56,241 nt of DNA. It comes from a virus. Position 1 is the stretch's first letter; every line of letters starts with the position of its first letter. Location: positions 1-56,241 of the IMG/VR virus record IMGVR_UViG_3300038825_000174. The stretch is one strand, 5' to 3'. Under the pieces are notes generated by a model, which was not told the origin of the DNA, made no database searches, and saw nothing but the letters and a program-made list of their open reading frames with translations. Positions 10,004 to 31,407 of this stretch are shown in pieces. The position numbers and the translations under genes are program-made.

Positions 10004-13000
10004 TTATTTTTTACGTGATGAAGCCAATCCACCCTTCTTCATTCTTTTGGGTTTAACTTTGGGTTTAGCTAAACCACCCTTCTTTAGTCTCTGTGGTTTC
10101 ATAGGTTTGGTAGGTACACCACCTACATAAAATCCACCAGTAGGACCAAACCTTTGTCCTCTACCACCACCACCAGTTCCTATAGATGGTGTAGATGGTA
10201 CTCCAAATGTTTGTGGTCTTTGTTGACCACCTGCTGTTTGAGATGTATATACTGGTGTTGTAGTTGGTGTAAATGTTGGTTGAGGTGGCTGACCAAAGTC
10301 ACTACCAAAGAAATCATCTATACCTGAAGCAGGACCACCATCATCTCTATCGTCATCCTGTTGCACTCTTTGTTTACCATAATCTGTACCCATACTAGCC
10401 AACTTCTTTTTCAAAGTGTCAGCTTCTCTTTTATTTCTTGCTTCTAAGGCTCTTAAATCTTTTTGAATACTTAAAAGATCTTGTACACCTTCTGATGGCT
10501 TTTCAATTCTACGTACAGACTCTTCTGTATAATCTTCATCAACAGGTGGTACTATAGACTCAGGTACATCATAGTCTATTATAGGTTTAGTTAAATCAGC
10601 TTTTTCTGTTTCTATCCTCTTTACCTCTTGTGCTTTTACTGGTGTAGTTTCTCTTGGGTCTACTACGGCATAATTCTGTTCTTCATCCATACCCATATCT
10701 ATTGGGGCTGTTTGTGTAACAGGATCTGCAAATCCAAATTCTTGTTCTCCTAATTCTGTAGGAAGTCCTGATGGTTGTGGTTCTGCAAAGGGTTTTCTTC
10801 TATCTATATCCATGCCCATACCACCCTCTGTGATATATTTTTGAAACCCCTCTCTACTAGCATCAGCAAATGTTTTTGCATTGTTTGAACTTGACCCTAC
10901 TGCACTACCTGCAGCTTTTGTTGCAGCAGCTGTATTACCACTTTTTATTGCTTTCTCAAAATCAGTTAGCTCTTCACCTTGTTCTGTATTACTTAGTATA
11001 CCTATACCCTGTAATAACTTTTTACCTAAAGTACCTATACCACCTGATCCATTCTTCCGTAGACTTTCAGCAGTTGCTAACACGGTTTTTCTTTGTTCAG
11101 CAGTAAGTTTTCTTTTTTGTAATTCAGCTTGTACAGCATTTAGTCCAGTTGGAGAGTTTTTGTTACTTAAAGTTTGTCCTGCCATAATTGCTAGACCTGC
11201 AAGTGGACTAAAGAATAATGCAGCCCCTGTTGCGGCATATCTGTAGATGGGACTGTCGAACTGTTTATAATATTTTATTAATGTATCTTCATCCATTTCT
11301 TGAAGACTCTTATACTCTACTCCATCTACCATTGGTCCTCTAGGTTTTTCAAATGTAATTCCATCACCAATAGCAGGTGCAGGTGAAGCAGGTCCACCAC
11401 TGTCTCCACCACCTTCTGAATAACCACCACCTATATTGCTTTGTTGTTTAGGTGCAGACTCGTCTAGCTCATAGCCCTCTGGTATCTCCATCTGAGGTTC
11501 ACCATTAACAAATGGTATATACTTTACATCACCATCAGCATTTACATATCTCTTCATAACAACATTACCATAGCCAGTTCTTAGTAATGCGTCTTCCATT
11601 TCTTTTCTATCTTCATCTGTTATGGTTGGTGTATCGCCACCTGTAGGTCTTTTAAAACGTGGGTCATCTAATAATCCACCACTTTGCATCTTCTTTGGTG
11701 CATTACCAGACACTACAATAAGGTCTGCCATCTCAAATGGCACGTCATCAGGTATGGTAGCTTCCTCTGAGTTACCCATTTGTCCCATCTCTTCCATCAT
11801 CTTTAGACCTTGCTTTGCATCTTGTCGCATCTTCATTAAGGTATTAAGACCAATAAATCGCACCACATCAGCAGGAAAGACAAACTCACCCTCACTCATC
11901 ATCACAGGTATATCATCAGCTACTTCTTCTTTTAGTGAACCTGATGGCACTTTGTTACCTGACTTTGGCTCTGTCTCACCACCTTCATCACGTAATCCCC
12001 CTTCATTAAAAAGTTCCATTTGACCGTCCATCAGTGTTCCTCCCTTACTAAATCTGAATGTCTGTTTTTTTGGATCAAACTCAAAGTTTGATATGTCTAA
12101 CTCAGATGCAAAATCTTCATCAAAATCTGCCCCACCATAATGTGGCATCTCGTCTAAATATGAACTAACATCTTCATCAGGTTTTGCATGTTTTAATTTT
12201 ATAGTATTTAATTTTATAGTTCCTTTAGATTCTTTCTGTAAAACATTTACAGCTTTTTTAAAAGCTTTATCATAAAGATCCTTAAATCCCTCTTCATTAC
12301 CTCTTTCTCTTCCTATCATTCTATAACTAGGAATTACTATCTTATCTAAACCTTGCTCTTTAGCTAGTGCTATACTAGCCTTTAGACCCTTTAACATAGT
12401 TTCTGTTTTAGTTGTAATTGGTGTTTTATATTTTTCAAATATAGGTTCTTCAGGTCCGAGTGGTTGTGGATCATTTGCAGGATTTTTAGTATATAGATTT
12501 TCTTCAATCTTTTTAAGTTTTTGCTCAATAGCTTGTGCATTTACTCCTTCTAACCTACCAGTGCTTGTATCTCCTTTATACTCTAAAACTGAGTATAACA
12601 TATCTAAGTCATAGGGTAAACCAAGAATGTGTGATCTTGCATCATTTTCTATAGCATACGCATGTATCTTTCTAATACCATCTTCAACTAACTTTTGATT
12701 TTGTTTATCAGTCTTATCTATATAATTTTCTACATCAAATTTAGGATCATTTCTTAGCGACTTGTAACCTCGTTTATACTCCTCTATAAGATTTTCTGCT
12801 ATTTTTATCTGAGATAGTCTATATGTAGAGGGAATATCCTCACCCTGTATGTCTAAATCAAGTGCTTTGTCTGCTTCTCTTATATTTCCATAATTTGTAT
12901 TATCATAAGCTAACATCATTGAATCAAATTCAAAATTAGGAGTGTTGAATCTTTGATGCACCTCCTCATAAAAATTCTTTGCTATATAATTATAAGGATT

Positions 13001-13966
13001 AGTTGTTGACATAGAATAACTCATTATGTCATTTTCTAAATTTTCTGTTATTTCTTCTACATCAAAATTAGGATCATCAGTATATCTATCTGTTTTTAAT
13101 TTATATTTAGTAATACCCTCAACATCTTCTTCATTAAGAAGAATGTCATCCATAAATGTATCTAGTTCATTAGCTAATTCAAAATTAACATCAGGGTTGT
13201 AAAGTACACCCTCTGCAGGTTCAGTTATACCTGAAGCTCTAGCAGCATCACTTTGTATTTCTTCTACTAATATGTAATCTTTACCATCTTCTCCTTGTCT
13301 GCGAGAAGCTCTAACATGGGCTACAACACCTATGGGAAAATGATCTTTAACTATATCTTCTACATCTTGTTCTACTTTAGGTGTATGTACAGTTACTTCA
13401 AAATAATTTCTTGGAGCATCTAATACACGTTGCCTTTGTGTATTATGAAAAATAGTATTTTTTTCTCTTAACTCCCTAACTCTTATGTCATAACCTTCAG
13501 GTATATTTTGAAGAGCTAACACCTCTTCTCTAAGGTATTTTTTATTTGGGTCTAATCTTATTTGAGCATTAGCTAATTCTGATTTTGTTACATTTGGTGA
13601 TCTTTTATTTATAAATGCTTCAATAGTTTGTCCTGTAGACCCTTCTTTAGCTATAGGCATCTGCTCTATTGTATCTTTTACAGGACTATAAAACTCTCCT
13701 ATCTTTCTAGGAATAGGTGCTTCTTGTCTTTCTTTAGCAGTTAAGTCATACAGTTCATCACTGTCAGGCAAATCCCTATACTCAAACTCATGAGCCGTTT
13801 CATATACAGCATCTCTTACTTGTGCTTTCTGTGTGTAAACTCTAGGCTTTGTAATAGGATTAGTGACTTTACCTGAAAGAGAAGATTTTTTTGCTTCTCT
13901 TTTTTGAATAAAATTATCTGGGTCAGGTTTTAAAAGTTTAGTTAAACCTTTACTTAATATTCCCAT
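10004..13966 (-). CDS. Giant polyvalent-type virion-associated protein
   Basis: 1320 aa. The N-terminal ~600 residues contain YILVEEIQSDAARASG and a helical segment (LKASIALAKEQGLDKIVIPS). This combination resembles the EIQSD domain of large polyvalent proteins carried by phages and plasmids. Residues ~650-800 (FNEGGLRDEGGE, MMSEGEFVFPADVVRFIG, MQSGGLLDD) match a segment often seen in marine podoviruses. The C-terminus is Gly/Lys-rich with repeated MKKGGLA-like units. It lies between portal and scaffold, so it may be packaged or ejected. The catalytic role is unknown. Confidence 0.8.
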   Translation of the reverse strand: MGILSKGLTKLLKPDPDNFIQKREAKKSSLSGKVTNPITKPRVYTQKAQVRDAVYETAHEFEYRDLPDSDELYDLTAKERQEAPIPRKIGEFYSPVKDTIEQMPIAKEGSTGQTIEAFINKRSPNVTKSELANAQIRLDPNKKYLREEVLALQNIPEGYDIRVRELREKNTIFHNTQRQRVLDAPRNYFEVTVHTPKVEQDVEDIVKDHFPIGVVAHVRASRRQGEDGKDYILVEEIQSDAARASGITEPAEGVLYNPDVNFELANELDTFMDDILLNEEDVEGITKYKLKTDRYTDDPNFDVEEITENLENDIMSYSMSTTNPYNYIAKNFYEEVHQRFNTPNFEFDSMMLAYDNTNYGNIREADKALDLDIQGEDIPSTYRLSQIKIAENLIEEYKRGYKSLRNDPKFDVENYIDKTDKQNQKLVEDGIRKIHAYAIENDARSHILGLPYDLDMLYSVLEYKGDTSTGRLEGVNAQAIEQKLKKIEENLYTKNPANDPQPLGPEEPIFEKYKTPITTKTETMLKGLKASIALAKEQGLDKIVIPSYRMIGRERGNEEGFKDLYDKAFKKAVNVLQKESKGTIKLNTIKLKHAKPDEDVSSYLDEMPHYGGADFDEDFASELDISNFEFDPKKQTFRFSKGGTLMDGQMELFNEGGLRDEGGETEPKSGNKVPSGSLKEEVADDIPVMMSEGEFVFPADVVRFIGLNTLMKMRQDAKQGLKMMEEMGQMGNSEEATIPDDVPFEMADLIVVSGNAPKKMQSGGLLDDPRFKRPTGGDTPTITDEDRKEMEDALLRTGYGNVVMKRYVNADGDVKYIPFVNGEPQMEIPEGYELDESAPKQQSNIGGGYSEGGGDSGGPASPAPAIGDGITFEKPRGPMVDGVEYKSLQEMDEDTLIKYYKQFDSPIYRYAATGAALFFSPLAGLAIMAGQTLSNKNSPTGLNAVQAELQKRKLTAEQRKTVLATAESLRKNGSGGIGTLGKKLLQGIGILSNTEQGEELTDFEKAIKSGNTAAATKAAGSAVGSSSNNAKTFADASREGFQKYITEGGMGMDIDRRKPFAEPQPSGLPTELGEQEFGFADPVTQTAPIDMGMDEEQNYAVVDPRETTPVKAQEVKRIETEKADLTKPIIDYDVPESIVPPVDEDYTEESVRRIEKPSEGVQDLLSIQKDLRALEARNKREADTLKKKLASMGTDYGKQRVQQDDDRDDGGPASGIDDFFGSDFGQPPQPTFTPTTTPVYTSQTAGGQQRPQTFGVPSTPSIGTGGGGRGQRFGPTGGFYVGGVPTKPMKPQRLKKGGLAKPKVKPKRMKKGGLASSRKK

Positions 13967-14198
13967 TGTTTACGGCATCCCTTAATTGACGTAGTCTTCT
14001 TAACATCATAATAGCACCTTGTGATCTATGCAGTATAACTAGATCGTTTGTCTGCTCCATGACTGCGTGGTTTTGTGCTATAAGATAATTTATATAATCA
14101 CTGAAGCTGTCCCATTGGTCCTTGTTGTTGACCAGTGGCTTGAGCTTGCTGAGTAGCTTGTCCTGTAGGTTGTGGGTTTGGCTGTTGTTGTTGTTCAT
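13950..14198 (-). CDS. Small hypothetical protein between portal and polyvalent gene
   Basis: 82 aa, helical (LQDKLLSKLKPLV, QDRRLRQLRDAV-like C-terminus). It overlaps the portal gene's Gln-rich 3' end by about 100 nt in another frame and the next gene by 17 nt. An AGGA lies very close to the ATG. The first ~30 codons mirror the portal's low-complexity tail, so the start is uncertain. Confidence 0.6.
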   Translation of the reverse strand: MNNNNSQTHNLQDKLLSKLKPLVNNKDQWDSFSDYINYLIAQNHAVMEQTNDLVILHRSQGAIMMLRRLRQLRDAVNNGNIK

Positions 14199-16260
14199 TT
14201 CCTGAGAATCCTTGTTCCTGTGGCATAGGCACTTGTCCTGTACCTATGGTTGCACCACCTGCTCCTGTTGGGTCTTGTGCGTCTGCTCCTGCAGGAGGTG
14301 TTGGTGCTTCAGGGGGTTGCTGAAATTTTTTCATGATCTCTGCTTGCAATGCAGCTTCGTCCATGTTGTTGGTTACTTTATCTGGGTCTAGGTCTAATGA
14401 CTTGGCTATCTCTCTTATTACATACTGAAACTTTGCAAACGGTGCAAGTGCTTGGTTACTTGCTACCTGCAAGAACTGCATAAGTCTCTGGCTACGTACT
14501 TCATTAGCCATAAGACTTTCTGTGCCACGAGCTTTTACTTCTAGATCACCTTTTGTATTCTTATCGTAATTAAACTGCATATTAAATCTAAACAATCCCT
14601 CTCCTAGAGGTCTGAGCAGATAGTCATCTACATTCTTTATGACATTCTTTACACCACCACTTGCAGCATTCATCAACATAGATATACCTGATGCAGTTCT
14701 TCCTACACCTGACACACCTGTTTGTCCATGAGAGAAGCTAGGTAGTCCTGTGCTTTCATCTGCAAGCACTCGTGCCTTATCAAACAGTTGCATATTTTCA
14801 TTTGCTACATTTGGAAACTTCGTACCAAAGATAGCTTGTCCGGGTGCCCCACCTTGCCTTCTAAATATTTTTCCGGGATATACACTTAGGTCTTGTCCGG
14901 GAACTAGGTTAGTTTCATCTATCTCTATAAGCAGATTACCTGACATTACAGCATTGTCTACAGCCATACGCATAAAACCATTCATCAATGTCTGTGTATC
15001 ATCCATGTTCTCTGCTATGCCTACACCAAAGAAACTGTATGGGTTAAGCTCATAGGGTGCTGCCATGTAGGGTATCTTTGCAGGTTTGAATGGGTTAAGC
15101 ACCATTCGGATTACTTTGTTATTACACACCCATGCATTTATCTGCACTTCATCAAAGTCATCTAGGTCTTCTGGTAGCTCTATCTGTTGCTCTCGTAGCA
15201 TACTCACATCTGCTGTACCCCAATACTCTAGCACCTCAAATCGTGCTATTGCATGTTCTGGTGAGTAATCAGATAGATCATCTTCCCAGTATTCTTTATT
15301 ATAGTTCTCTCCCATAGCTATAGCATCTTCTATAACCTGAGATCTAAAGTGTGGTCTTTTCTTTAATGCACGTAGCTGTGTACGTGATAGCTTGTGTCGT
15401 TCTATCACATACTGTGCTTCATCCATATTATTTGCATCAGGATCAGGAAAGAAGTTCCATACTGATACATGTGAAACTTGTGGCACTGTTTTAAATACAG
15501 GAGAATACTCACCATCTTCATCCCAGTTTGGATATTCTTTATCTACAGCAAATGGTCCTTTCATTACACCTGTACCAAACAAAGCCATCTCAAAGGCTGT
15601 GCTTCTTAGATGTTTGTTGGCATTAGACTCTTCTAGCTGATCGTGTATTTTCTTCTGCATATTCTTTGCAGCAATCATAGCAGGACTAAATGTCACTGCT
15701 GTTGGTGTCTTGCCCACACCCTCTCTTAAATTATCTACATCATCAAACTTACCCTGTAATGGTCCTAGCTTTTCCATTAGAGTTTTTTGTGTAGCACCTG
15801 CAGGTAGATCCTGACCATCTCCTGAAAAGCCATAAGGACTTTCCATTTCATCTAATCTATTTCGAATGCTTTCAGGTTCTTTGGGATCAAAGCTTACGTC
15901 TGATACTACACCCTCTGGTAGAGTTGTAGGCTCTACTGTGAGTGGGAACTTATTGTTAGCAAACAATACGTCTATTATCTGACCGTAAGCTGCAAGTGTT
16001 TTTGTTTTTGTTACTTTAATAAATACTCGTGACTTCTCTGCTTCTGTAAACTGCACATCAGAACCATATAGACCTCTGTAGTTTCTATAGGCTCTTAACC
16101 ATCTCTGTTCGTCTTGTTCTCTGTAGTCATCAGCTTTTTTGTATCTATCCATAATAAATGGTATGATATTGTAGCTTTTAGATTCGTCCTGTCCACCCTC
16201 TTCAGCTACATCATCAATAGCTATGGACGTGTCATCCATCATTATTTCTTCTTCTGCCAT
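14098..16260 (-). CDS. Portal (head-tail connector) protein
   Basis: 720 aa from the ATG at 16260 (MAEEEIMMDD); an in-frame TTG lies 12 nt upstream. Podovirus portal features include IPFIMDRYKKADDYREQDEQRWLRAYRNYRGLYG near the N-terminus (in parts), the SHVSVWNFFPDPDANNMDEAQYVIER-type segment and the GVGRTASGISMLM segment. The last ~90 residues are a Pro/Gln-rich disordered tail. It forms the dodecameric ring for packaging and ejection, directly downstream of the large terminase. Confidence 0.9.
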   Translation of the reverse strand: MAEEEIMMDDTSIAIDDVAEEGGQDESKSYNIIPFIMDRYKKADDYREQDEQRWLRAYRNYRGLYGSDVQFTEAEKSRVFIKVTKTKTLAAYGQIIDVLFANNKFPLTVEPTTLPEGVVSDVSFDPKEPESIRNRLDEMESPYGFSGDGQDLPAGATQKTLMEKLGPLQGKFDDVDNLREGVGKTPTAVTFSPAMIAAKNMQKKIHDQLEESNANKHLRSTAFEMALFGTGVMKGPFAVDKEYPNWDEDGEYSPVFKTVPQVSHVSVWNFFPDPDANNMDEAQYVIERHKLSRTQLRALKKRPHFRSQVIEDAIAMGENYNKEYWEDDLSDYSPEHAIARFEVLEYWGTADVSMLREQQIELPEDLDDFDEVQINAWVCNNKVIRMVLNPFKPAKIPYMAAPYELNPYSFFGVGIAENMDDTQTLMNGFMRMAVDNAVMSGNLLIEIDETNLVPGQDLSVYPGKIFRRQGGAPGQAIFGTKFPNVANENMQLFDKARVLADESTGLPSFSHGQTGVSGVGRTASGISMLMNAASGGVKNVIKNVDDYLLRPLGEGLFRFNMQFNYDKNTKGDLEVKARGTESLMANEVRSQRLMQFLQVASNQALAPFAKFQYVIREIAKSLDLDPDKVTNNMDEAALQAEIMKKFQQPPEAPTPPAGADAQDPTGAGGATIGTGQVPMPQEQGFSGNEQQQQPNPQPTGQATQQAQATGQQQGPMGQLQ

Positions 16261-23134: not shown

Positions 23135-23167
23135 CTTTATATGTCATCTTAGAACTAGTTATATATA

Positions 23168-23195
23168 ATTATAACAGATTCTGTGAGTATGTCAA
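23168..23195 (-). promoter_or_regulatory. Consensus sigma70 promoter for the leftward (late) arm
   Basis: On the minus strand: TTGACA at 23195-23190, 16-bp spacer, TATAAT at 23173-23168. Both hexamers are perfect consensus. The spacer contains the palindrome ACAGATTCTGT (23174-23184, plus-strand reading), a classic place for an operator. The first downstream gene starts at 23028, leaving a ~130-nt leader with direct repeats. Confidence 0.7.
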
Positions 23196-23558
23196 TATGC
23201 AATCTCAGCCAATTCAGTCAAATATTTGGCAGCAGCAGTTTCATATATACAAAAGTGGTTAACATTCAAAAATCCTAATCTGTGTATTTATACAAGCATA
23301 TAACGCCAGTACCCCTAGGTGTCCCCTGCCTGTAAGGCAGTCATGCAGTCTTATGATTCGAAGACTTGGTCAAGATCAGAAACAAGCAAATCACTACCAT
23401 AGGTAGTGTAAGTTATTGAAATATAAGCATATATTTCTAATAAACAACTGTTATCACATCAGTTGCAAGCAACTGTAGCTTCTTAAAATCTTCAATTCCC
23501 AGAGAATTGAGTAAAATTAGAGTGCCGATGCATGGTTTAGTTGGTACAACTAACCTAC

Positions 23559-23572
23559 CCCAACATTGGGAC
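23559..23572. promoter_or_regulatory. Palindromic operator-like site 1 (half-degenerate)
   Basis: CCCAACATTGGGAC: core CCCAA-CA-TTGGG of the six-copy palindrome family. The left-most GT is replaced by AC. It lies 84 bp upstream of the first early gene, just ahead of the long hairpin. Confidence 0.65.
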
Positions 23573-23581
23573 AACTTATAT

Positions 23582-23635
23582 ATCCTCATTTTTATTTACA
23601 CCATGAAATGGGTAAATGTAAATAAAAATGAGGAT
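23582..23635 (+). promoter_or_regulatory. 19-bp-arm hairpin that covers the first early gene's ribosome site
   Basis: Left arm ATCCTCATTTTTATTTACA (23582-23600) is perfectly complementary to 23617-23635. The 16-nt loop itself begins with CCAT-GAA-ATGG. The right arm includes AGGA at 23631-23634, the Shine-Dalgarno of the gene starting at 23643, so folding would hide it. May act as translational switch, processing site or cruciform. Confidence 0.7.
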
Positions 23636-23642
23636 TAATATA

Positions 23643-24317
23643 ATGTCAAATCAAACAGCAAAAGCTTTCGAAACTTTCACTGGTACTCTCGAAGAGAGAG
23701 GTTCTGTTCTAGCGAAGCTAGAGAAACAGAGAGTAACTAGCCTTGAGAAGGCTAACACTAAAGACGTAGTCTTTAATGGTTTAGCTTATCAACTGGGACA
23801 GTTGATCCATGAACTCACTCTAGAGAGTGACTCTGGTCGAATAACTTCAGATAGGTTGCAAGCAACCTCGATGAACAAAGTTGCTTCTCAGAGAAGAAGC
23901 GAAGCTTTACAGCTTTACAGAAACTTTGATGCCATTCAAGAATGGCTCAAGGGAAGAGTTGTCAAGAAGAGAAAGCAGAAGATTGCTTTCACTTCTCTAA
24001 CAGCAATGCTGAAAGCATTCAAGTTTGAAACTCAACCTAAGGTTGAGAAGACAGATGATAAATCATCTGCTACACCATCAACTAAGGTTGATGAAAAGCC
24101 CAACGTTGGGACTACTCAACCAAAGGCTGAAACACAAGATGCTAAAGCATCTGATACTCAACCTAAGGTTGAGAAAGTGAGAGTTCCACAGAACTCTAAA
24201 GAGTTTGCTGACTACGTTCACAAACTAGTTATCAAATTTGGATTTGATAAAGATGAAGTTCTTGAAGCTATCTTTGATAGCTTTGAGAATAAAACAGCTA
24301 AAAAGAGAGTAGCTTAA
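23643..24317 (+). CDS. First early protein, unknown; hairpin-studded gene
   Basis: 224 aa from the ATG at 23643, 8 nt after AGGA; an in-frame ATG at 23628 lies inside the Shine-Dalgarno stem and is less likely. Helical N-terminal domain to ~residue 125 (LEERGSVLAKLEKQRVTSLE, EALQLYRNFDAIQEWLKGRV), then a Lys/Thr/Asp-rich linker (~130-185) with QPKVEK twice and PNVGTT from an in-gene palindrome, then a C-terminal helix (EFADYVHKLVIKFGFDKDEV). Roughly one perfect hairpin per 36 nt runs through the gene. No family recognised; position suggests an early host-takeover or regulatory protein. Confidence 0.85.
   Translation: MSNQTAKAFETFTGTLEERGSVLAKLEKQRVTSLEKANTKDVVFNGLAYQLGQLIHELTLESDSGRITSDRLQATSMNKVASQRRSEALQLYRNFDAIQEWLKGRVVKKRKQKIAFTSLTAMLKAFKFETQPKVEKTDDKSSATPSTKVDEKPNVGTTQPKAETQDAKASDTQPKVEKVRVPQNSKEFADYVHKLVIKFGFDKDEVLEAIFDSFENKTAKKRVA
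24099..24112. promoter_or_regulatory. Palindrome copy inside the first early gene
   Basis: CCCAACGTTGGGAC, lacking only the outer GT on the left. It is in frame as Pro-Asn-Val-Gly-Thr, as is the copy at 25676. Confidence 0.6.
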
Positions 24318-24328
24318 TTGCTACTCTC
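24305..24328 (+). terminator. Strong hairpin across the first early gene's stop codon
   Basis: GAGAGTAGC (24305-24313) pairs perfectly with GCTACTCTC (24320-24328); the TAA stop is in the 6-nt loop. No long T-run follows (ACTTTAAT), so it could equally be an mRNA 3'-end stabiliser or processing site as a terminator. Confidence 0.5.
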
Positions 24329-24348
24329 ACTTTAATCGGAGATTAAAC

Positions 24349-24423
24349 ATGAATACATTTGAAGACATCTTTGGATGTCTTGCCATATTTATTGGCTTGA
24401 CAATCTTATTATATGTAACCTAA
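24349..24423 (+). CDS. 24-aa single-TM peptide
   Basis: ATG at 24349 with CGGAG 8 nt ahead; the product MNTFEDIFGC then a hydrophobic LAIFIGLTILLYV segment. Its TAA is the first three bases of the 46-bp hairpin element at 24421, exactly as in the next gene. An 8-bp hairpin (24362-24381) lies in its coding part. A membrane micro-protein is likely, but translation is unproven. Confidence 0.6.
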   Translation: MNTFEDIFGCLAIFIGLTILLYVT

Positions 24424-24466
24424 TATATTTATTCACTCAGTATGAGTGAAGTAAATAAATATATTA
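24421..24466 (+). repeat. 46-bp hairpin element, copy 1
   Basis: Outer arms TAATATATTTATT (24421-24433) and its complement (24454-24466) enclose an 8-bp apical stem TTCACTCA-GTA-TGAGTGAA (24432-24450). Identical over all 46 bases to 24870-24915. It starts at the stop codon of the upstream peptide, and a palindrome and ribosome site follow. Confidence 0.85.
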
Positions 24467-24476
24467 GTCAACAACA

Positions 24477-24492
24477 GTCCCAACATTGGGAC
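24477..24492. promoter_or_regulatory. Palindromic operator-like site 2
   Basis: GTCCCAACATTGGGAC, one base off perfect symmetry at the centre. It lies 10 bp after the 46-bp element and 20 bp before the next ATG. If TATATT at 24460-24465 is a -10 box, the site would overlap the first transcribed bases. Confidence 0.75.
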
Positions 24493-24512
24493 ACAACTTA
24501 ACGGAGTTAAAC

Positions 24513-24872
24513 ATGAAAAAAGTTTCTGCATTAATTGATGAAATCAATAAAGGTTTGCCAAAGAAAAAGATATCTTATGGATATCTTGGTAACGTTTATT
24601 TTTCCAAAGGAAAACAGGTTGATGATACCTCTTGGAGAATCTTTGTGCCACCTACAGAAAGAGAGGTGGTAACACGGACATATAAATCACGTATAGAAGG
24701 ACAGGAAGGTCTTGAAAAGACCTACACTACTTCTGTAGGCTCTGCTCCTTACGGAGATAGCATTGGTGGTTTCCACAGAGCAGATGCCGAAGAGCATTGT
24801 CTTTCTATACTAGAAAGATTAATGAGTGGTGAAACTCTTAGAACAAATAGTGGAGCAGACTTTAAACTGTAA
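24513..24872 (+). CDS. Early hypothetical protein
   Basis: 119 aa from the ATG at 24513 with ACGGAG 7 nt ahead (an ORF reaching back through the palindrome has no proper start). MKKVSALIDEINKGLPKK, YGYLGNVYFSKGKQVDDTSW, GGFHRADAEEHCLSILERL. Unknown family. It is flanked on both sides by the 46-bp element plus palindrome module and contains several hairpins (24567-24587, 24600-24614, 24707-24723, 24800-24818). Confidence 0.8.
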   Translation: MKKVSALIDEINKGLPKKKISYGYLGNVYFSKGKQVDDTSWRIFVPPTEREVVTRTYKSRIEGQEGLEKTYTTSVGSAPYGDSIGGFHRADAEEHCLSILERLMSGETLRTNSGADFKL

Positions 24873-24915
24873 TATATTTATTCACTCAGTATGAGTGAAG
24901 TAAATAAATATATTA
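24870..24915 (+). repeat. 46-bp hairpin element, copy 2
   Basis: Base-for-base copy of 24421-24466. Its first three bases are the TAA stop of the upstream gene. Followed after 14 bp by a perfect palindrome and then AACGGAGTTAACATG, nearly the same as after copy 1. Confidence 0.85.
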
Positions 24916-24929
24916 CTTGGATTGAAACA

Positions 24930-24945
24930 GTCCCAACGTTGGGAC
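24930..24945. promoter_or_regulatory. Palindromic operator-like site 3
   Basis: GTCCCAACGTTGGGAC, perfect 16-bp palindrome, 17 bp before the ATG at 24963. It has the same arrangement relative to hairpin and ribosome site as site 2. Confidence 0.78.
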
Positions 24946-24962
24946 ACTTTAACGGAGTTAAC

Positions 24963-25640
24963 ATGAAAGTTAGATTTACAAAAATGTCTGCCAACCGAAA
25001 GGTTGGTAAGATGACTGTGACAACTACAGAGAGACAGTCCTGTCCTGATGCCTGTCCATTCAAAGGGAATGGATGCTATGCCGATGGCTTCCCATTGGCA
25101 GGTGTTTGGAACAGAGTTCCAGATGAAGGTCATGATTGGGACACTCTGTGTGACAGAGTGGAGCATGAAGCCACAGATGTGTGGAGACATAATCAGGCAG
25201 GAGATTGTCCAAAGGACAAGCACAATCCTGAGTTGATTGATGCTCCAAAAATGCTACAGCTTGTTCATGCTAATAAACGTGGGAACAAGAAGGGCATGAC
25301 CTATACACATTACAGTATGGCTTATAGCCATAACAGAAATGTGGTCAAAAAAGCCAACAGTAATGGTTTTACCATTAACTTGTCTGGCAATAACCTAAGT
25401 CATGCAGATGACTTGTTTGATCTTGGTATAGCACCAGTTACCACTGTGCTACCTATTGATCAGATGACTAACACGACTACTCCCAAAGGGAGAAAGGTTG
25501 TAGTCTGTCCTGCTGTCATCAAAGATGACGTGTCTTGTATGACTTGCAAGTTGTGTTGGAAACAGCGTGATGCAATCGTAGGTTTCCCTGCACATGGAAA
25601 CAGTAAACAAAAAGCAAATGGAGTTGCAAATGCAGAGTAA
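24963..25640 (+). CDS. Cys-rich phage protein with CPxxCP...GCYA and CxxCxxC motifs
   Basis: 225 aa. N-terminal SCPDACPFKGNGCYADG (residues ~26-42) and C-terminal VSCMTCKLCW (~198-207) carry six or more conserved-looking Cys, as in a family widespread in phages and plasmids (I recall it as a DUF). The Cys pattern fits a zinc or iron-sulphur site; catalysis is unknown. ATG at 24963 follows GGAG. Many hairpins lie in it, including 24991-25006 with a GAAA loop, 25055-25073, and 25079-25100, which pairs only if one G-U is allowed. Confidence 0.85.
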   Translation: MKVRFTKMSANRKVGKMTVTTTERQSCPDACPFKGNGCYADGFPLAGVWNRVPDEGHDWDTLCDRVEHEATDVWRHNQAGDCPKDKHNPELIDAPKMLQLVHANKRGNKKGMTYTHYSMAYSHNRNVVKKANSNGFTINLSGNNLSHADDLFDLGIAPVTTVLPIDQMTNTTTPKGRKVVVCPAVIKDDVSCMTCKLCWKQRDAIVGFPAHGNSKQKANGVANAE

Positions 25641-25773
25641 CAGTAACTTTGAAAAAGTTAAAAAGAAACCAGACAGTCCCAACGTTGGGACAGATAGAAG
25701 AGCCAAACACTCTCTCCTCAGAGAGAGAAGGCTTGTCCGTAAACTTAGACTACGTCAGAAGGGAGTAGCTTAA
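25630..25773 (+). CDS. 47-aa very basic peptide
   Basis: ATG at 25630 overlaps the end of the Cys-rich gene, and the TAA overlaps the next ATG (TAATG). The product is Lys/Arg-rich (FEKVKKKPDSPNVGTD, LRERRLVRKLRLRQKGVA). It contains a perfect palindrome copy read as Ser-Pro-Asn-Val-Gly-Thr. Coupling on both sides supports translation. Confidence 0.62.
   Translation: MQSNSNFEKVKKKPDSPNVGTDRRAKHSLLRERRLVRKLRLRQKGVA
25676..25691. promoter_or_regulatory. Palindromic operator-like site 4
   Basis: GTCCCAACGTTGGGAC, perfect, inside the 47-aa ORF and 82 bp before the next gene. Followed at 25710-25727 by CTCTCTC-CTCA-GAGAGAG. Confidence 0.75.
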
Positions 25774-26147
25774 TGGATAAAAATGTTAGGACATATTGGA
25801 ATTTGCATGGTGGTCTGTGGTCTATCATGGATAGACAGACAGGCTTAGTCATAGGCAGACAGCCAGAACTGTTCCTATTGGTGGGCAGGTTTAATGTCCG
25901 TCAAGGTGGCAGACAGCGTGTACTTCTCGAAGGGAAGAAGAACGTCCATGCATTTGCAGAGGGATGGTATCCAGAGGTCTGGATTAGTCCCAAGTTCTAC
26001 CATGATGAGGGTAGGTCTGTGACCTACAATCCTTACAAGAACGATACCTTTGTCTATGTAGACAATGGTGAACCTGTTGGCGAGGTAGGTTCTATCTGGC
26101 TAACAACTACGGCTGAAGGCAAACCTTCAGTTAAAGTATACAGTTAA
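25773..26147 (+). CDS. Early hypothetical protein
   Basis: 124 aa, MDKNVRTYWNLHGGLWSIMD, FNVRQGGRQRVLLEGKKNVH, WYPEVWISPKFYHDEGRSV. The pattern of aromatic and basic residues resembles small phage proteins of unknown function often found beside DNA-metabolism genes. Ribosome site GGGAG. Five 7-bp hairpins lie inside (25820, 25969, 26011, 26050, 26113). Confidence 0.82.
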   Translation: MDKNVRTYWNLHGGLWSIMDRQTGLVIGRQPELFLLVGRFNVRQGGRQRVLLEGKKNVHAFAEGWYPEVWISPKFYHDEGRSVTYNPYKNDTFVYVDNGEPVGEVGSIWLTTTAEGKPSVKVYS

Positions 26148-26186
26148 TATAATACTTGATACTTTAGTGAAAGTATTATATAACTG
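26141..26186 (+). promoter_or_regulatory. Long hairpin at a gene end, with an alternative fold
   Basis: CAGTTAATATAATACTT (26141-26157) pairs with 26171-26186 with one bulged A; the left arm contains the TAA stop. A competing 7-bp fold ATACTTT/AAAGTAT lies at 26159-26176. A palindrome follows 17 bp later, so this repeats the hairpin-palindrome-gene pattern with unrelated sequence. Confidence 0.65.
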
Positions 26187-26202
26187 TTCACATAACTCAA
26201 CA

Positions 26203-26218
26203 GTCCCAACGTTGGGAC
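26203..26218. promoter_or_regulatory. Palindromic operator-like site 5
   Basis: GTCCCAACGTTGGGAC, perfect, 23 bp upstream of the ATG at 26242 and just ahead of AAAGGAG. Confidence 0.78.
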
Positions 26219-26241
26219 ACAACACAGAAAGGAGCATTACC

Positions 26242-26556
26242 ATGCTTACATTTAACTTTGACAATCTTCCAAAGGGAGAAAAAATCTCTGGTGGTTTTAC
26301 TGCCGTAAAATTAATTGCTACAGCTATCAAGCTAAAGCTACAAGGCTACAAGCCTGTGATCTACAGGAATGACAACATCCAAGAAACTGGATGGTTTATC
26401 CGTAAGGGTAAAGGTGGCAAGTCTGGTGAGCCTTTGGTTCGCTTGAACTTTGGCAAGTCCTACTCTTCCTTCCATGCCTATGATAGGAAGGGCAAGCGAA
26501 GAGTGGCAAGCTATGTGCCTATCAAGTCCTTCTTGATACAGAAGAAGGTAGCCTAA
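26242..26556 (+). CDS. Early basic hypothetical protein
   Basis: 104 aa from the ATG at 26242 with AAAGGAG upstream. MLTFNFDNLPKGEKISGGFT, KLKLQGYKPVIYRNDN, SSFHAYDRKGKRRVASYVP. Small basic protein, unknown family. Hairpins at 26395-26412 (GTAA loop, one G-U) and two mutually exclusive ones at 26521-26537 and 26528-26548. Confidence 0.8.
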   Translation: MLTFNFDNLPKGEKISGGFTAVKLIATAIKLKLQGYKPVIYRNDNIQETGWFIRKGKGGKSGEPLVRLNFGKSYSSFHAYDRKGKRRVASYVPIKSFLIQKKVA

Positions 26557-26558
26557 CC

Positions 26559-26798
26559 ATGATGCACTATGAGATATTTATCTCAGTGGATGGGCAACGA
26601 GGTGTGGTGAGAGTTGGTAGCTCTCACCCTCTCGTGAAGGGTACACCTTCTGCTATTGAGTATGCCTTGCATCTTACAGAGATGTGCTATCCAGACGCAG
26701 TAGTTGAGTTTGACTTTATCAAAGAGTACACTCTTGACGATGAACCAGACGTAGGCTATGTCTATGAAGCACCTACACCAGTACAAACATATCATTAA
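26559..26798 (+). CDS. Small hypothetical protein
   Basis: 79 aa (start 26559 or the next ATG at 26562). MHYEIFISVDGQRGVVRVGS, acidic C-terminus DDEPDVGYVYEAPTP. Starts two bases after the upstream stop. Hairpins at 26570-26585 and 26606-26628 lie in the first 70 nt and could affect its translation. Confidence 0.75.
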   Translation: MMHYEIFISVDGQRGVVRVGSSHPLVKGTPSAIEYALHLTEMCYPDAVVEFDFIKEYTLDDEPDVGYVYEAPTPVQTYH

Positions 26799-26810
26799 TG
26801 GAGACAGCCA

Positions 26811-26999
26811 ATGGCTAAAATCATACACAAAAAACCAGTGCCTAAAAGACCACGCAATCTGCTTCATGCAGAGATGGTAACACAGGGCATCTTGACACAC
26901 AAAGTAATAGGTGACAAGAGGTCTAAGATATTAGAGAACAGAGCCAAGAAGAGGGCAATGGAGTTTAAGAAAATGAACAAGGAAGATTATGATGATTAA
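26811..26999 (+). CDS. Small basic hypothetical protein
   Basis: 62 aa, MAKIIHKKPVPKRPRNLLHA, KRSKILENRAKKRAMEFKKM. Highly basic and helical, acidic last residues. GGAG lies upstream of the ATG. Could bind nucleic acid; no family recognised. Confidence 0.75.
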   Translation: MAKIIHKKPVPKRPRNLLHAEMVTQGILTHKVIGDKRSKILENRAKKRAMEFKKMNKEDYDD

Positions 27000-27168
27000 A
27001 AATTATGATGACTTTAAGGATAAAGTCTATGAACACAGATCCAAGCTACGTGGTATGCTCAAGCTACTCAAAGGTATAAAACCTTTGGAGTCTGAGGTCA
27101 CGAAAGCTTATAATATAATTAATGCAATTGAACAGGAGAGAACTGATGCAGAAAAAAATAGTGGTTAG
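26992..27168 (+). CDS. 58-aa hypothetical helical protein
   Basis: ATG at 26992 (or 26989) overlaps the upstream TAA and follows AAGGA. Product MIKNYDDFKDKVYEHRSKLR then GMLKLLKGIKPLESEVTKAY: a probable helical hairpin. It overlaps the methyltransferase start by 23 nt. A 7-bp hairpin lies inside (27069-27087). Confidence 0.62.
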   Translation: MIKNYDDFKDKVYEHRSKLRGMLKLLKGIKPLESEVTKAYNIINAIEQERTDAEKNSG

Positions 27169-28240
27169 TCTATGTGGTGGCACAGACAGTGCCTACCTCT
27201 CATGCCTTGACGCAGGTATTGATGTATCACCTGATGGTGAATACGAGTACCACACATTTGAGACAGACAAGTATGCTAGTGCTGTATCAAGATACAGGAT
27301 ACCTCATGCTATACATCATGGTGATGCCAATGGTTGGGATAAACTAAAAGGTAGAGATGTCTTTCTGCTTATAGCAGGTTTCCCTTGTCAGCCTTATTCT
27401 GTGGCAGGTAAACAGCTTGGCACTTCAGATAGTCGTGACTTATCTGAGGTTATGTATCAGGCATTGGAAGGATTGAACCCTGAGTTCTATCTGTTTGAGA
27501 ATGTCGAGTCCAAAGCCAAGCATGAGTGGTACAAGCGTATTAGTGCCATACGTCCAGATGCACAGATGCGATCTCACAACAGTGGCAAGGTGTCAGGACA
27601 GGAGAGAAAGCGTGTCTACATAACTAACTCACCACATGACGAGTTGGCTGACATGGGCATCGTACTCAATGATGTGCTAGAAGATGGTGCTATGGCAGAT
27701 AGAGATAAGTCCTACTGCATTGATGCCAACTACTTCAAAGGTGGTAGCATGAAGATGTACTACGAGAAAGCACGTAGGCAGATAGTCTATGTGCAAGGTG
27801 AGAAGATTGCTCTCAAGTCTAAGAAGTGTAGACAAGTTGGCGAAGCTGATCTCAAAGGCTACGACATCATCAAGCGTGTGTATAGTAGGTGGGGCAAGAG
27901 TCCTACCCTGACTACCATGCAAGGTGGATGGCGAATGCCCAAGGTAGAGTGTGACAATTGGATAAACCAAACCACTTTACTAAAAGACAATGCAGATGTG
28001 GACGAACTTTTTTGGAGAGCATTAACACCTTTAGAATGTGAACGTCTACAGACTTTGCCTGATGAGTGGACACAGTATGGAGACTTTTATGAGTACGAAG
28101 AAATAGAGATGCCTTACGAAACTGTCACACACAGAGTTCGTAAGACTAAACGTATATCAAACAGCCAACGCTACAAGATGATCGGCAATGGCTTCACTCG
28201 TGCAGTGATCTCGCACATATTAGAAGGAGTATATACATGA
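27146..28240 (+). CDS. DNA (cytosine-5) methyltransferase
   Basis: 364 aa from the ATG at 27146, 8 nt after GGAG. Motif IV GFPCQPYSVAGKQ with catalytic Cys81, motif VI FENVESK, motif VIII QERKRVYI, and late motifs LTPLECERLQTLPDEWT and MIGNGFTRAVISHIL. Motif I is a variant, SLCGGTDSAYL, instead of the common FxGxGG. It methylates cytosine in phage DNA, probably against host restriction. Target unknown, and no partner endonuclease is seen. Confidence 0.93.
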   Translation: MQKKIVVSLCGGTDSAYLSCLDAGIDVSPDGEYEYHTFETDKYASAVSRYRIPHAIHHGDANGWDKLKGRDVFLLIAGFPCQPYSVAGKQLGTSDSRDLSEVMYQALEGLNPEFYLFENVESKAKHEWYKRISAIRPDAQMRSHNSGKVSGQERKRVYITNSPHDELADMGIVLNDVLEDGAMADRDKSYCIDANYFKGGSMKMYYEKARRQIVYVQGEKIALKSKKCRQVGEADLKGYDIIKRVYSRWGKSPTLTTMQGGWRMPKVECDNWINQTTLLKDNADVDELFWRALTPLECERLQTLPDEWTQYGDFYEYEEIEMPYETVTHRVRKTKRISNSQRYKMIGNGFTRAVISHILEGVYT

Positions 28241-29090: not shown

Positions 29091-29175
29091 GGGGCAAGTA
29101 TTATTATTGACAATAGCATTCGTTATCCTTATAACATTGATAACCAATGCAACTATAGGAGTATTTATATCATGA
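29083..29175 (+). CDS. 30-aa single-TM peptide
   Basis: ATG at 29083 overlaps the 3' end of the upstream gene by 8 nt; its TGA overlaps the next ATG (ATGA). MTEGQ followed by a hydrophobic stretch VLLLTIAFVILITLI. A longer in-frame ORF from 28951 would overlap the upstream gene almost fully and is unlikely. Confidence 0.6.
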   Translation: MTEGQVLLLTIAFVILITLITNATIGVFIS

Positions 29176-29360
29176 TTGATAAAACAAAAAGAACACTTAG
29201 GCGATTAACACAATGTGTTAAGGACAACCCTGACTTGTTACAAAGTTTTGTAACACTTGCAGTAGAGTACGAGAAGCTAGGTCTAATTAAATTAGACTCA
29301 GTTGGAATGAATCGTGAGTCACTAACAGAACATTTTGAAAGGAGTGTAGCATATGAATAG
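29172..29360 (+). CDS. Small hypothetical protein
   Basis: 62 aa, MIDKTKRTLRRLTQCVKDNP, QSFVTLAVEYEKLGLIKL. Two strong hairpins lie in it: TGTTACAAA/TTTGTAACA (29236-29255) and GTCTAAT/ATTAGAC (29281-29297). Unknown function. Confidence 0.7.
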   Translation: MIDKTKRTLRRLTQCVKDNPDLLQSFVTLAVEYEKLGLIKLDSVGMNRESLTEHFERSVAYE

Positions 29361-30552: not shown

Positions 30553-31407
30553 ATGGCTTTAGATTTTACAAACAACGCACTTGGAGAACTTCCAATTTAT
30601 TTAGACTTTACTACACGTACTGAGCCTACACGTATGGCAGGTAAGAAGTACGTCATCAACAATGATACTGATGAGGTCATTGGTATTGTTGGTAGCAAGT
30701 TCAACTCTGTTACACACAAAGAGTTCTTTGATAAGGTGTGCAGAACTATGTCTGAACAGCTTGGTGATGAAGCAATGGAAGGTGCAAATGTAAAGTGGAA
30801 CAATGCACGTAATGGTGCATTCGCTATGCTTGACGCAACCCTACCTGCGACTAAGGCGTTAATCACGACTGATAAGCAACAGACAGAAATATCACAAAGA
30901 GTGATAGCTCTGCATGGTGTGGATGGTTTATGTTCTAACCAAGTATTCTTTGGTGCAATAGATTTCTTCTGCACAAATGGTATGATCAGAGGTGAGCATG
31001 ACAAGGTGCGAAGAAAGAACACTACTAACTTCAGCATGTCTGCCTTTATTAAGGAGCTAGAGGATGCTAACAGTGACTTCTATTCACAGGCTGAACAGCT
31101 ACAGGAGTGGGCAAGAACACCTCTTGAGTATAACTCAGTGAGAGATATGCTTCACTCTCTCATGGGTTCTGAGAAGAAAGGTGATAAGATGCTTGGCTTG
31201 TATGCACAAGAGGTACAAACAAGAGGACACAATGCCTTTGCTCTGTACTCTGCATTCACTAACTATGCATCATATGCAGATGAGAGAAATGGTTTCAAGC
31301 TACGTAACACAGGCAATGATACCAATGCTATCAGCATGTGGGGACGTGAGCAGGAAGTTACCAAGTGGGTATCATCAAAGCAGTTCAAAGAACTGGTTGC
31401 TGCTTAA
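30553..31407 (+). CDS. DUF932 (phage/plasmid-like) protein
   Basis: 284 aa. Features: IGIVGSKFNSVTHKEFFDKV near the N-terminus; RVIALHGVDGLCSNQVFFGA; FFCTNGMIRGEHDKVRRKN; and WGREQEVTKWVSSKQFKELV at the end. This is the DUF932 family common in phages and plasmids; function unknown, often next to recombination genes. Its TAA overlaps the integrase ATG. Confidence 0.85.
   Translation: MALDFTNNALGELPIYLDFTTRTEPTRMAGKKYVINNDTDEVIGIVGSKFNSVTHKEFFDKVCRTMSEQLGDEAMEGANVKWNNARNGAFAMLDATLPATKALITTDKQQTEISQRVIALHGVDGLCSNQVFFGAIDFFCTNGMIRGEHDKVRRKNTTNFSMSAFIKELEDANSDFYSQAEQLQEWARTPLEYNSVRDMLHSLMGSEKKGDKMLGLYAQEVQTRGHNAFALYSAFTNYASYADERNGFKLRNTGNDTNAISMWGREQEVTKWVSSKQFKELVAA

What the first reader, a model, noticed from the sequence alone, without database searches (positions are those of the whole stretch)
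23326..26628. Early region saturated with short perfect hairpins, inside genes as well as between them
Seen: about 59 inverted repeats with stems of 6-9 bp (a few longer) and small loops in 3.3 kb by hand count, about 45 of them with 7 bp or more (two of those include a G-U pair). Rough arithmetic (eight loop sizes x 4^-7 x 3300) predicts about two perfect 7-bp cases by chance, a few more with AT bias. In the gene at 23643-24317 they recur about every 36 nt through the reading frame, so codon choice appears tuned to keep the stems. Loops are strongly biased to GAA, GTA, AAA, TAA, AA and TTT. I see no similar density in the capsid or tail genes. Possible meanings: armoured or processed early mRNA, ssDNA hairpins bound by a phage protein, an origin or entry segment, or quasi-palindrome perfection by template switching during replication.
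Basis: partly seen in the sequence, partly recalled or inferred. Interest (0 to 1): 0.92.

Follow-up and report, generated by a model that had tools for sequence, protein, structure and literature searches.

The report
Hairpin-packed first operon of marine phage
In one lineage of an abundant ocean phage group, the first genes expected to be expressed after infection carry a small perfect hairpin roughly every 40 bases, inside genes as well as between them, and comparison of relatives shows selection keeps them in the messenger RNA, probably to protect or control that first message.

Summary
Window 23326-26628 has 69 inverted repeats with stems of 6 bp or more and 49 with 7 bp or more; dinucleotide shuffles give 7.0 and 1.9. 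Shuffles keeping protein and codon usage do not reproduce it: first gene 15 observed, 1.5 expected, maximum 5. The window is an HMO-2011-type (subgroup I) marine phage. The zone starts just after a promoter-like region and stops at a DNA-methyltransferase gene. It recurs in about a dozen related contigs but not in sister contigs similar elsewhere. Individual hairpins come and go while density stays high. Stems covary (28 double-changed cells, 9.4 expected, 0/500 shuffles). Fourfold sites diverge 7.8% in stems, 14.9% outside, 24.6% in loops. Stems avoid ribosome-binding sites. Excess structure is stronger on the sense strand in about 90% of genes tested. This indicates selection on the mRNA, although G-U pairs are not clearly favoured over A-C mismatches in the saturated lineage, an unresolved anomaly. 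Best explanation: the immediate-early mRNA is armoured against ribonucleases or RNA-targeting immunity. The RNA-level part is well supported; the protective function is inferred. No precedent turned up in the papers searched.

The parts
23326..27087 (+). hairpin-saturated zone of the first rightward operon, including leader, genes and gaps; ends just before the methyltransferase gene
   Evidence: boundary repeated in relatives
23141..23195 (.). divergent promoter-like region: leftward TTGACA-16-TATAAT, 12/12 (23195-23168, minus strand), and rightward ATGTCA-17-TATAAT, 10/12 (23141-23169); transcription start inferred near 23177, not measured
   Evidence: consensus match only; 23 sites found vs 24.6 expected in shuffles for the class as a whole
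23326..23553 (+). leader hairpins: 23326-23340, 23392-23408, 23418-23437, 23460-23475, 23492-23510, 23537-23553
   Evidence: leader folds at z -4.5
23576..23643 (+). long AU-rich hairpin with 5-nt bulge; its 3' arm holds the Shine-Dalgarno sequence of the first gene; similar shape, different sequence in sister phages
23643..24317 (+). gene 1, 224 aa, no clear family (weak sub-threshold UBA_2 match); densest hairpin array (21 stems >=6 bp); predicted mostly helical with a disordered linker
24305..24381 (+). hairpins over the end of gene 1 and a 24-codon ORF (24349-24423); Shine-Dalgarno GGA lies in the loop of 24331-24347
24420..24467 (+). long intergenic hairpin (about 13+7 bp, 5-nt bulge, GUA loop)
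24477..24492 (+). dispersed palindrome GTCCCAACATTGGGAC
24513..24872 (+). gene 2, 119 aa, no family; 6 stems >=6 bp vs 0.85 expected
24869..24917 (+). long intergenic hairpin, near copy of 24420-24467
24930..24945 (+). dispersed palindrome GTCCCAACGTTGGGAC
24963..25640 (+). gene 3, DUF7227 (PF23872, E 9e-78); 10 stems >=6 bp vs 1.3
25676..25691 (+). dispersed palindrome GTCCCAACGTTGGGAC inside the small ORF 25594-25773
25773..26147 (+). gene 4, Phage_L5_gp82 family (PF25735); 5 stems >=7 bp vs 0.41
26138..26187 (+). long intergenic hairpin
26203..26218 (+). dispersed palindrome GTCCCAACGTTGGGAC
26242..26556 (+). gene 5, 104 aa, no family; 4 stems >=6 bp vs 1.2
26559..26798 (+). gene 6, 79 aa, no family; 3 stems >=6 bp vs 0.65
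27010..27087 (+). last two hairpins of the zone, in the small ORF 26989-27168
27122..28240 (+). C5-cytosine DNA methyltransferase gene; near background in the contigs where it was measured: the outer boundary of the zone

Best explanation
The zone encodes a hyper-structured immediate-early mRNA. Selection on the sense RNA keeps a 7-9 bp, 2-4 nt-loop hairpin about every 40 nt through leader, gaps and coding sequence of the first rightward operon, while leaving most ribosome-binding sites open; synonymous and some amino-acid changes are used to do so. The most likely benefit (inferred) is that the first transcript, made by host RNA polymerase before the phage controls the cell, resists single-strand-specific ribonucleases (RNase E type, toxin RNases) and/or RNA-targeting immunity. 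Long hairpins between genes may be processing sites.
For: Far above synonymous shuffles, and only in this operon. Density is kept although individual hairpins turn over. Covariation: 28 cells with both sides changed vs 9.4+-2.2, 0/500 shuffles, far above slid controls. Fourfold-site divergence among saturated genomes: stems 7.8%, unpaired 14.9%, loops 24.6%; no such conservation against unsaturated sisters. Stems nearly absent from -12 to +11 around 49 starts, sparse at -18 to -13. Folding excess vs synonymous shuffles is stronger on sense than antisense: mean z difference -0.96+-0.17 (saturated, 89% of genes) and -1.29+-0.19 (unsaturated, 91%). A DUF932 relative encoded inside the zone is hairpin-rich (12-13 vs ~1.8) while relatives downstream of the methyltransferase have 2-4. 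The zone starts after a promoter-like region; the leftward side is not enriched. Precedent for protection: in phage T4, structure protects RNAs from RegB, and RegB plus RNase E drive early mRNA decay (PMC3014915).
Against: In the saturated lineage G-T pairs are barely commoner than A-C mismatches inside stems (9 vs 5; 121 vs 95 in a looser count; 19 vs 16 in single-change comparisons), whereas stability selection on RNA should tolerate G-U. No transcript, RNA structure or half-life data exist. Sister phages with similar flanks do with much weaker structure. Genomes compared are related, so counts are not independent. A translated mRNA is unwound by ribosomes, so the benefit of armour in coding sequence is not obvious. 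Protection itself was not tested.
Confidence: 0.48

Rival explanations
1. Mutational origin: template switching between imperfect inverted-repeat arms during replication of a heavily transcribed segment perfects the hairpins; selection mainly removes harmful ones at ribosome-binding sites.
For: Stems are perfect, with G-T and A-C mismatches similarly rare; nonsynonymous changes on both arms are tolerated; transcription-linked quasipalindrome mutation is known in yeast (PMC3820800, abstract); arm homogenisation in coding DNA is known (PMC8604942).
Against: Spacer (loop) inversion, a reported signature, seen at one 2-nt loop only among 69 differing loops; listed substitutions between near-identical genomes were mostly isolated; stem sites conserved, though partner codon constraint could mimic this; sense-strand bias is not expected; sister phages with the same operon lack saturation.
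Confidence: 0.17
2. Regulatory array: a phage or host RNA-binding protein or RNase (for example an antitermination, Rho-excluding, processing or early-shutoff system) recognises the hairpins by shape.
For: Long intergenic hairpins with conserved shape and changing sequence; a dispersed palindrome that differs in concert between lineages; first operon only.
Against: Short hairpins share no loop or stem consensus; no gene in the ~14 kb around the zone was found in all saturated and no unsaturated contigs apart from antisense or spurious ORFs; far more hairpins than a regulator would need.
Confidence: 0.17
3. DNA-level function: hairpins form in single-stranded or cruciform phage DNA (entry, replication start, protein binding).
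For: Little G-U preference in stems; loop sizes and GNA loops suit DNA hairpins as well as RNA.
Against: Confined to the rightward transcribed side of the promoter region; sense-strand bias; no shared stem sequence for a binding protein; no known single-stranded stage in tailed-phage entry (general knowledge).
Confidence: 0.12
4. An extreme of the general tendency to strong mRNA folding in coding interiors, with no special function.
For: Many genes of this phage and of its relatives show milder sense-strand structure; strong folding inside genes with weak starts is common across life (PMC7063772).
Against: Sharp boundary at the methyltransferase gene, presence in untranslated gaps, perfect short stems and two-level distribution between sister lineages.
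Confidence: 0.06

Closest known systems
Selection for strong local mRNA folding in coding interiors with weak folding at starts (PMC7063772)
   Same: Same direction inside genes and at start codons; the same 40-nt windows were used here
   Different: Here discrete perfect hairpins, one operon only, including gaps, with present and near-absent states in sister phages
Genome-scale ordered RNA structure of positive-strand RNA viruses, and structured genomes of RNA phages such as MS2 (largely from memory)
   Same: Pervasive structure through coding sequence, density kept while pairs change
   Different: Those are RNA genomes; this is an mRNA segment of a tailed dsDNA phage
T7-type early operon cut by RNase III between genes (from memory)
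   Same: First operon with long hairpins between genes
   Different: T7 structure is at processing sites, not throughout the genes; RNase III cleavage is not shown here
T4 RegB / RNase E early mRNA decay (PMC3014915)
   Same: Precedent that RNA structure shields phage mRNA from an early endoribonuclease
   Different: Hairpin-saturated early genes are not described there in the passages read; no RegB homologue was identified or sought here
N4 virion RNA polymerase hairpin promoters (from memory)
   Same: Short-stem, 3-nt-loop hairpins near the early region
   Different: Here dozens of unrelated hairpins inside genes, with no consensus
HMO-2011-type phages CRP-1, CRP-345, HMO-2011
   Same: Same genome plan; mild hairpin enrichment in first genes (strongest in CRP-1)
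   Different: Not saturated; CRP-2, CRP-207, CRP-603 show little or none

Membership tests
HMO-2011-type phage, subgroup I | DNA polymerase and genome plan shared with HMO-2011 / CRP-1 / CRP-345 | tested here: met
   Polymerase 66% (HMO-2011), 64% (CRP-345, CRP-1) over full length; collinear blocks to CRP-1 and CRP-345
RNA-level structured coding sequence | Excess of structure over synonymous shuffles | tested here: met
RNA-level structured coding sequence | Covariation in stems | tested here: met
   28 double-changed cells vs 9.4, 0/500
RNA-level structured coding sequence | Sense strand more structured than antisense | tested here: met
   about 90% of 59 genes; genomes related
RNA-level structured coding sequence | G-U tolerated more than A-C in stems | tested here: inconclusive
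   small excess only: 9 vs 5, 121 vs 95, 19 vs 16
Quasipalindrome template switching | Loop (spacer) inversions between relatives | tested here: not met
   one 2-nt site only
Quasipalindrome template switching | Clustered multi-base changes in one arm | tested here: inconclusive
   listed stem substitutions mostly isolated, no formal cluster test
T7-type RNase III-processed early operon | Long double-stranded hairpins between early genes | tested here: met
T7-type RNase III-processed early operon | RNase III cleavage of those hairpins | not testable with these tools
   needs RNA from infected cells
N4 hairpin promoters | Conserved promoter hairpin sequence upstream of early genes | tested here: not met
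   no stem or loop consensus; most hairpins lie in coding sequence
N4 hairpin promoters | Giant virion RNA polymerase gene (about 3500 aa) | tested here: not met
   largest ORFs 1368 and 1320 aa; no homology search for the polymerase was made
Known Rfam RNA family | Match at gathering score | tested here: not met
   none in the window

The most novel reading that the evidence does not exclude
A tailed DNA phage lineage has turned its whole immediate-early transcript into an array of dozens of small perfect RNA hairpins as a defence against a ribonuclease-based or RNA-guided host immunity: a cis-acting structural counter-defence written into codon choice that sister phages lack.
Probability: 0.25. 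Interest if true: 0.9.

Novelty: new variant of a known kind. Interest (0 to 1): 0.72.

Why it matters
If right, it shows a phage protecting or controlling its first message by RNA shape, written into synonymous codons, and gives natural pairs of saturated and unsaturated sister phages. It would make testable which early threat (RNases, toxin RNases, RNA-guided immunity) acts on phage mRNA in abundant ocean bacteria. It also warns that codon choice and even amino acids in such genes can be driven by RNA folding, which affects how early phage proteins are read.

Tried and rejected
Chance or AT bias: rejected by two kinds of shuffles. Repeat copies of one element: rejected, stems are diverse; only the palindrome and the long hairpins recur. 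The palindrome as a marker of kinship: a collection scan found 79 stretches, but most are one unrelated conserved context from other contigs. Known RNA family: none. Defence or anti-defence gene in the zone: no PADLOC match except the methyltransferase next to it. Gene 1 as a known RNA-binding fold: low-confidence helical model, no significant PDB match. A trans factor marking the saturated state: none found in the ~14 kb around the zone. A recent transplant of the DUF932 gene into the zone: rejected on inspection, the two versions are diverged relatives, so this is weaker evidence for location than first thought. Host by integrase: one Rhodobiaceae MAG hit at 53%, not enough to name a host. 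Hiding of a particular single-strand motif: YC-rich words are enriched in stems but base composition explains at least part of it. Literature: no report of a hairpin-saturated early operon in a DNA phage was found.
Full report
What was checked. The claimed density is real. In 23326-26628 there are 69 stems of 6 bp or more and 49 of 7 bp or more with loops of 0-8, against 7.0 and 1.9 in dinucleotide shuffles; no 3.3-kb stretch clear of the zone has more than 7. Shuffles that keep each protein and its codon counts also fail to reproduce it: 15 stems >=7 bp in 23643-24317 against 1.5 expected, with smaller but clear excess in the next five genes and little or none from 27122 onward or in late genes.

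Identity. The window is an IMG/VR virus record. [quoted passage not shown]). The first rightward genes are mostly of unknown function: DUF7227, an L5 gp82 relative, then a DNA methyltransferase.

Two states among close relatives. Contigs L001, L002/L106, L004/L111, L005/L118, L006/L125, L015, L018/L109, L019/L108, L020, L112, L115-L117 and partial L105, L107, L113 are saturated; L007/L123, L008, L009/L124, L110, L114, L119-L122 and L126 are not. The states are not strictly binary: the first gene of some unsaturated contigs is enriched several-fold (for example 8 vs 1.1-1.5 in L121 and L122), and the CRP-1 first gene is also enriched (11 vs 1.8). On the left flank the window groups with unsaturated contigs (support 95/96), and on the integrase tree two saturated groups are separated by unsaturated ones, weakly, so the state is not tied to the whole genome; two gains, or one gain and a loss, are possible.

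The zone has edges. It begins after a promoter-like region and ends before the methyltransferase gene in the saturated contigs that reach it. The leftward genes on the other side are not enriched. In L112, L115, L116, L117 (partial) and L118 a DUF932 relative lies inside the zone and is rich in hairpins (12-13 vs about 1.8 where complete), while the DUF932 relative downstream of the methyltransferase in the window group has 2-4. These two versions are diverged, so this shows that a gene in the zone carries hairpins, not that one gene gained them by moving.

Signs of selection. Density is retained while particular hairpins change place. On nine first-gene sequences (eight distinct) 28 cells change on both sides of a pair against 9.4 expected, 0 of 500 shuffles, and far above slid controls. 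Some changes alter amino acids on both arms, as in AAGCTATCTTTGATAGCTT to AACATATTTTCAATATGTT. Fourfold-degenerate sites diverge 7.8% in stems, 14.9% in unpaired sequence and 24.6% in loops among saturated genomes, with no stem conservation towards unsaturated sisters. Genomes are related, so these are not independent counts; partner-codon constraint could add to the stem effect.

RNA or DNA. Three results point to RNA. Stems are almost absent from -12 to +11 around 49 start codons and sparse from -18 (exceptions are the 24-codon ORF at 24349, whose Shine-Dalgarno sits in a hairpin loop, and the first gene, whose Shine-Dalgarno lies in the long hairpin). The folding excess over synonymous shuffles is stronger on the sense than on the antisense strand in 89% of saturated and 91% of unsaturated genes tested. 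The zone lies on one transcribed side only. Loops peak at 2-4 nt against a flat background, with pyrimidine-purine closing pairs 131 to 47 and a G..A loop bias on the plus strand (32 vs 12 in the pooled tri- and tetraloop counts; codon usage may contribute). Against RNA: G-T is not clearly preferred to A-C within stems. This is unexplained; it would suit DNA hairpins or template switching.

Template switching. It makes perfect arms, is raised by transcription in yeast lacking RNase H2 (PMC3820800, abstract) and reshapes coding sequence (PMC8604942). A reported signature, inverted loops, was found at one 2-nt loop only among 69 differing loops, and substitutions in near-identical pairs looked isolated (no formal cluster test). 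It remains a rival.

Mechanism. Shown by sequence: hairpins exceed chance, are position-bound, and covary with conserved stems. Supported: selection acts through the sense RNA. Inferred: the RNA is the immediate-early message and the hairpins protect it. In T4, RNA structure protects against the RegB endoribonuclease, and RegB with RNase E dominates early mRNA decay (PMC3014915), so the idea has precedent. Alternatives are regulation by a shape-reading protein, processing at the long hairpins, or exclusion of Rho. Which host the window phage infects is not known.

Verdict. A real and strong feature, best described as an extreme and localised form of selected mRNA structure in a DNA phage. No earlier description was found in the papers searched, but the library is incomplete.

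Noticed in passing
24097-24112, 24477-24492, 24930-24945, 25676-25691, 26203-26218: A dispersed palindrome, mostly just upstream of ribosome-binding sites and twice within reading frames: GTCCCAACGTTGGGAC or close variants here, CCCGATGTCGGG (5-7 copies) in unsaturated sister contigs at matching places, TCCCGACAATGTTGGGA in L116. The copies change in concert, as expected for sites of one trans-acting factor (operator or RNA target).
   Followed up: partly
23168-23195: A perfect 12/12 sigma-70 consensus promoter with TG extension on the minus strand, sharing its -10 region with a rightward 10/12 promoter.
   Followed up: no
24420-24467 and 24869-24917: Two near-identical long intergenic hairpins with a 5-nt bulge; like the leader hairpin 23576-23643, equivalents of similar shape but different sequence occur in sister phages.
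   Followed up: partly
29205-29297: Three 8-9 bp hairpins close together in a small gene (29172-29360) outside the zone; two or three stems of 6 bp or more also occur in the same gene of several saturated contigs.
   Followed up: no
11001-14300: The next richest stretch for hairpins (7 stems >=7 bp per 3.3 kb) lies largely in the 1320-aa minus-strand gene of unknown function, part of which is low in G+C.
   Followed up: no
23300-27120 and the same zone in eight relatives: CpG is strongly depleted inside stems relative to unpaired sequence (54 vs 492 occurrences).
   Followed up: no
L112, L115, L116, L118 and window 30553-31407: Two diverged versions of a DUF932 gene occupy different places in related genomes, inside the early zone or downstream of it.
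   Followed up: partly
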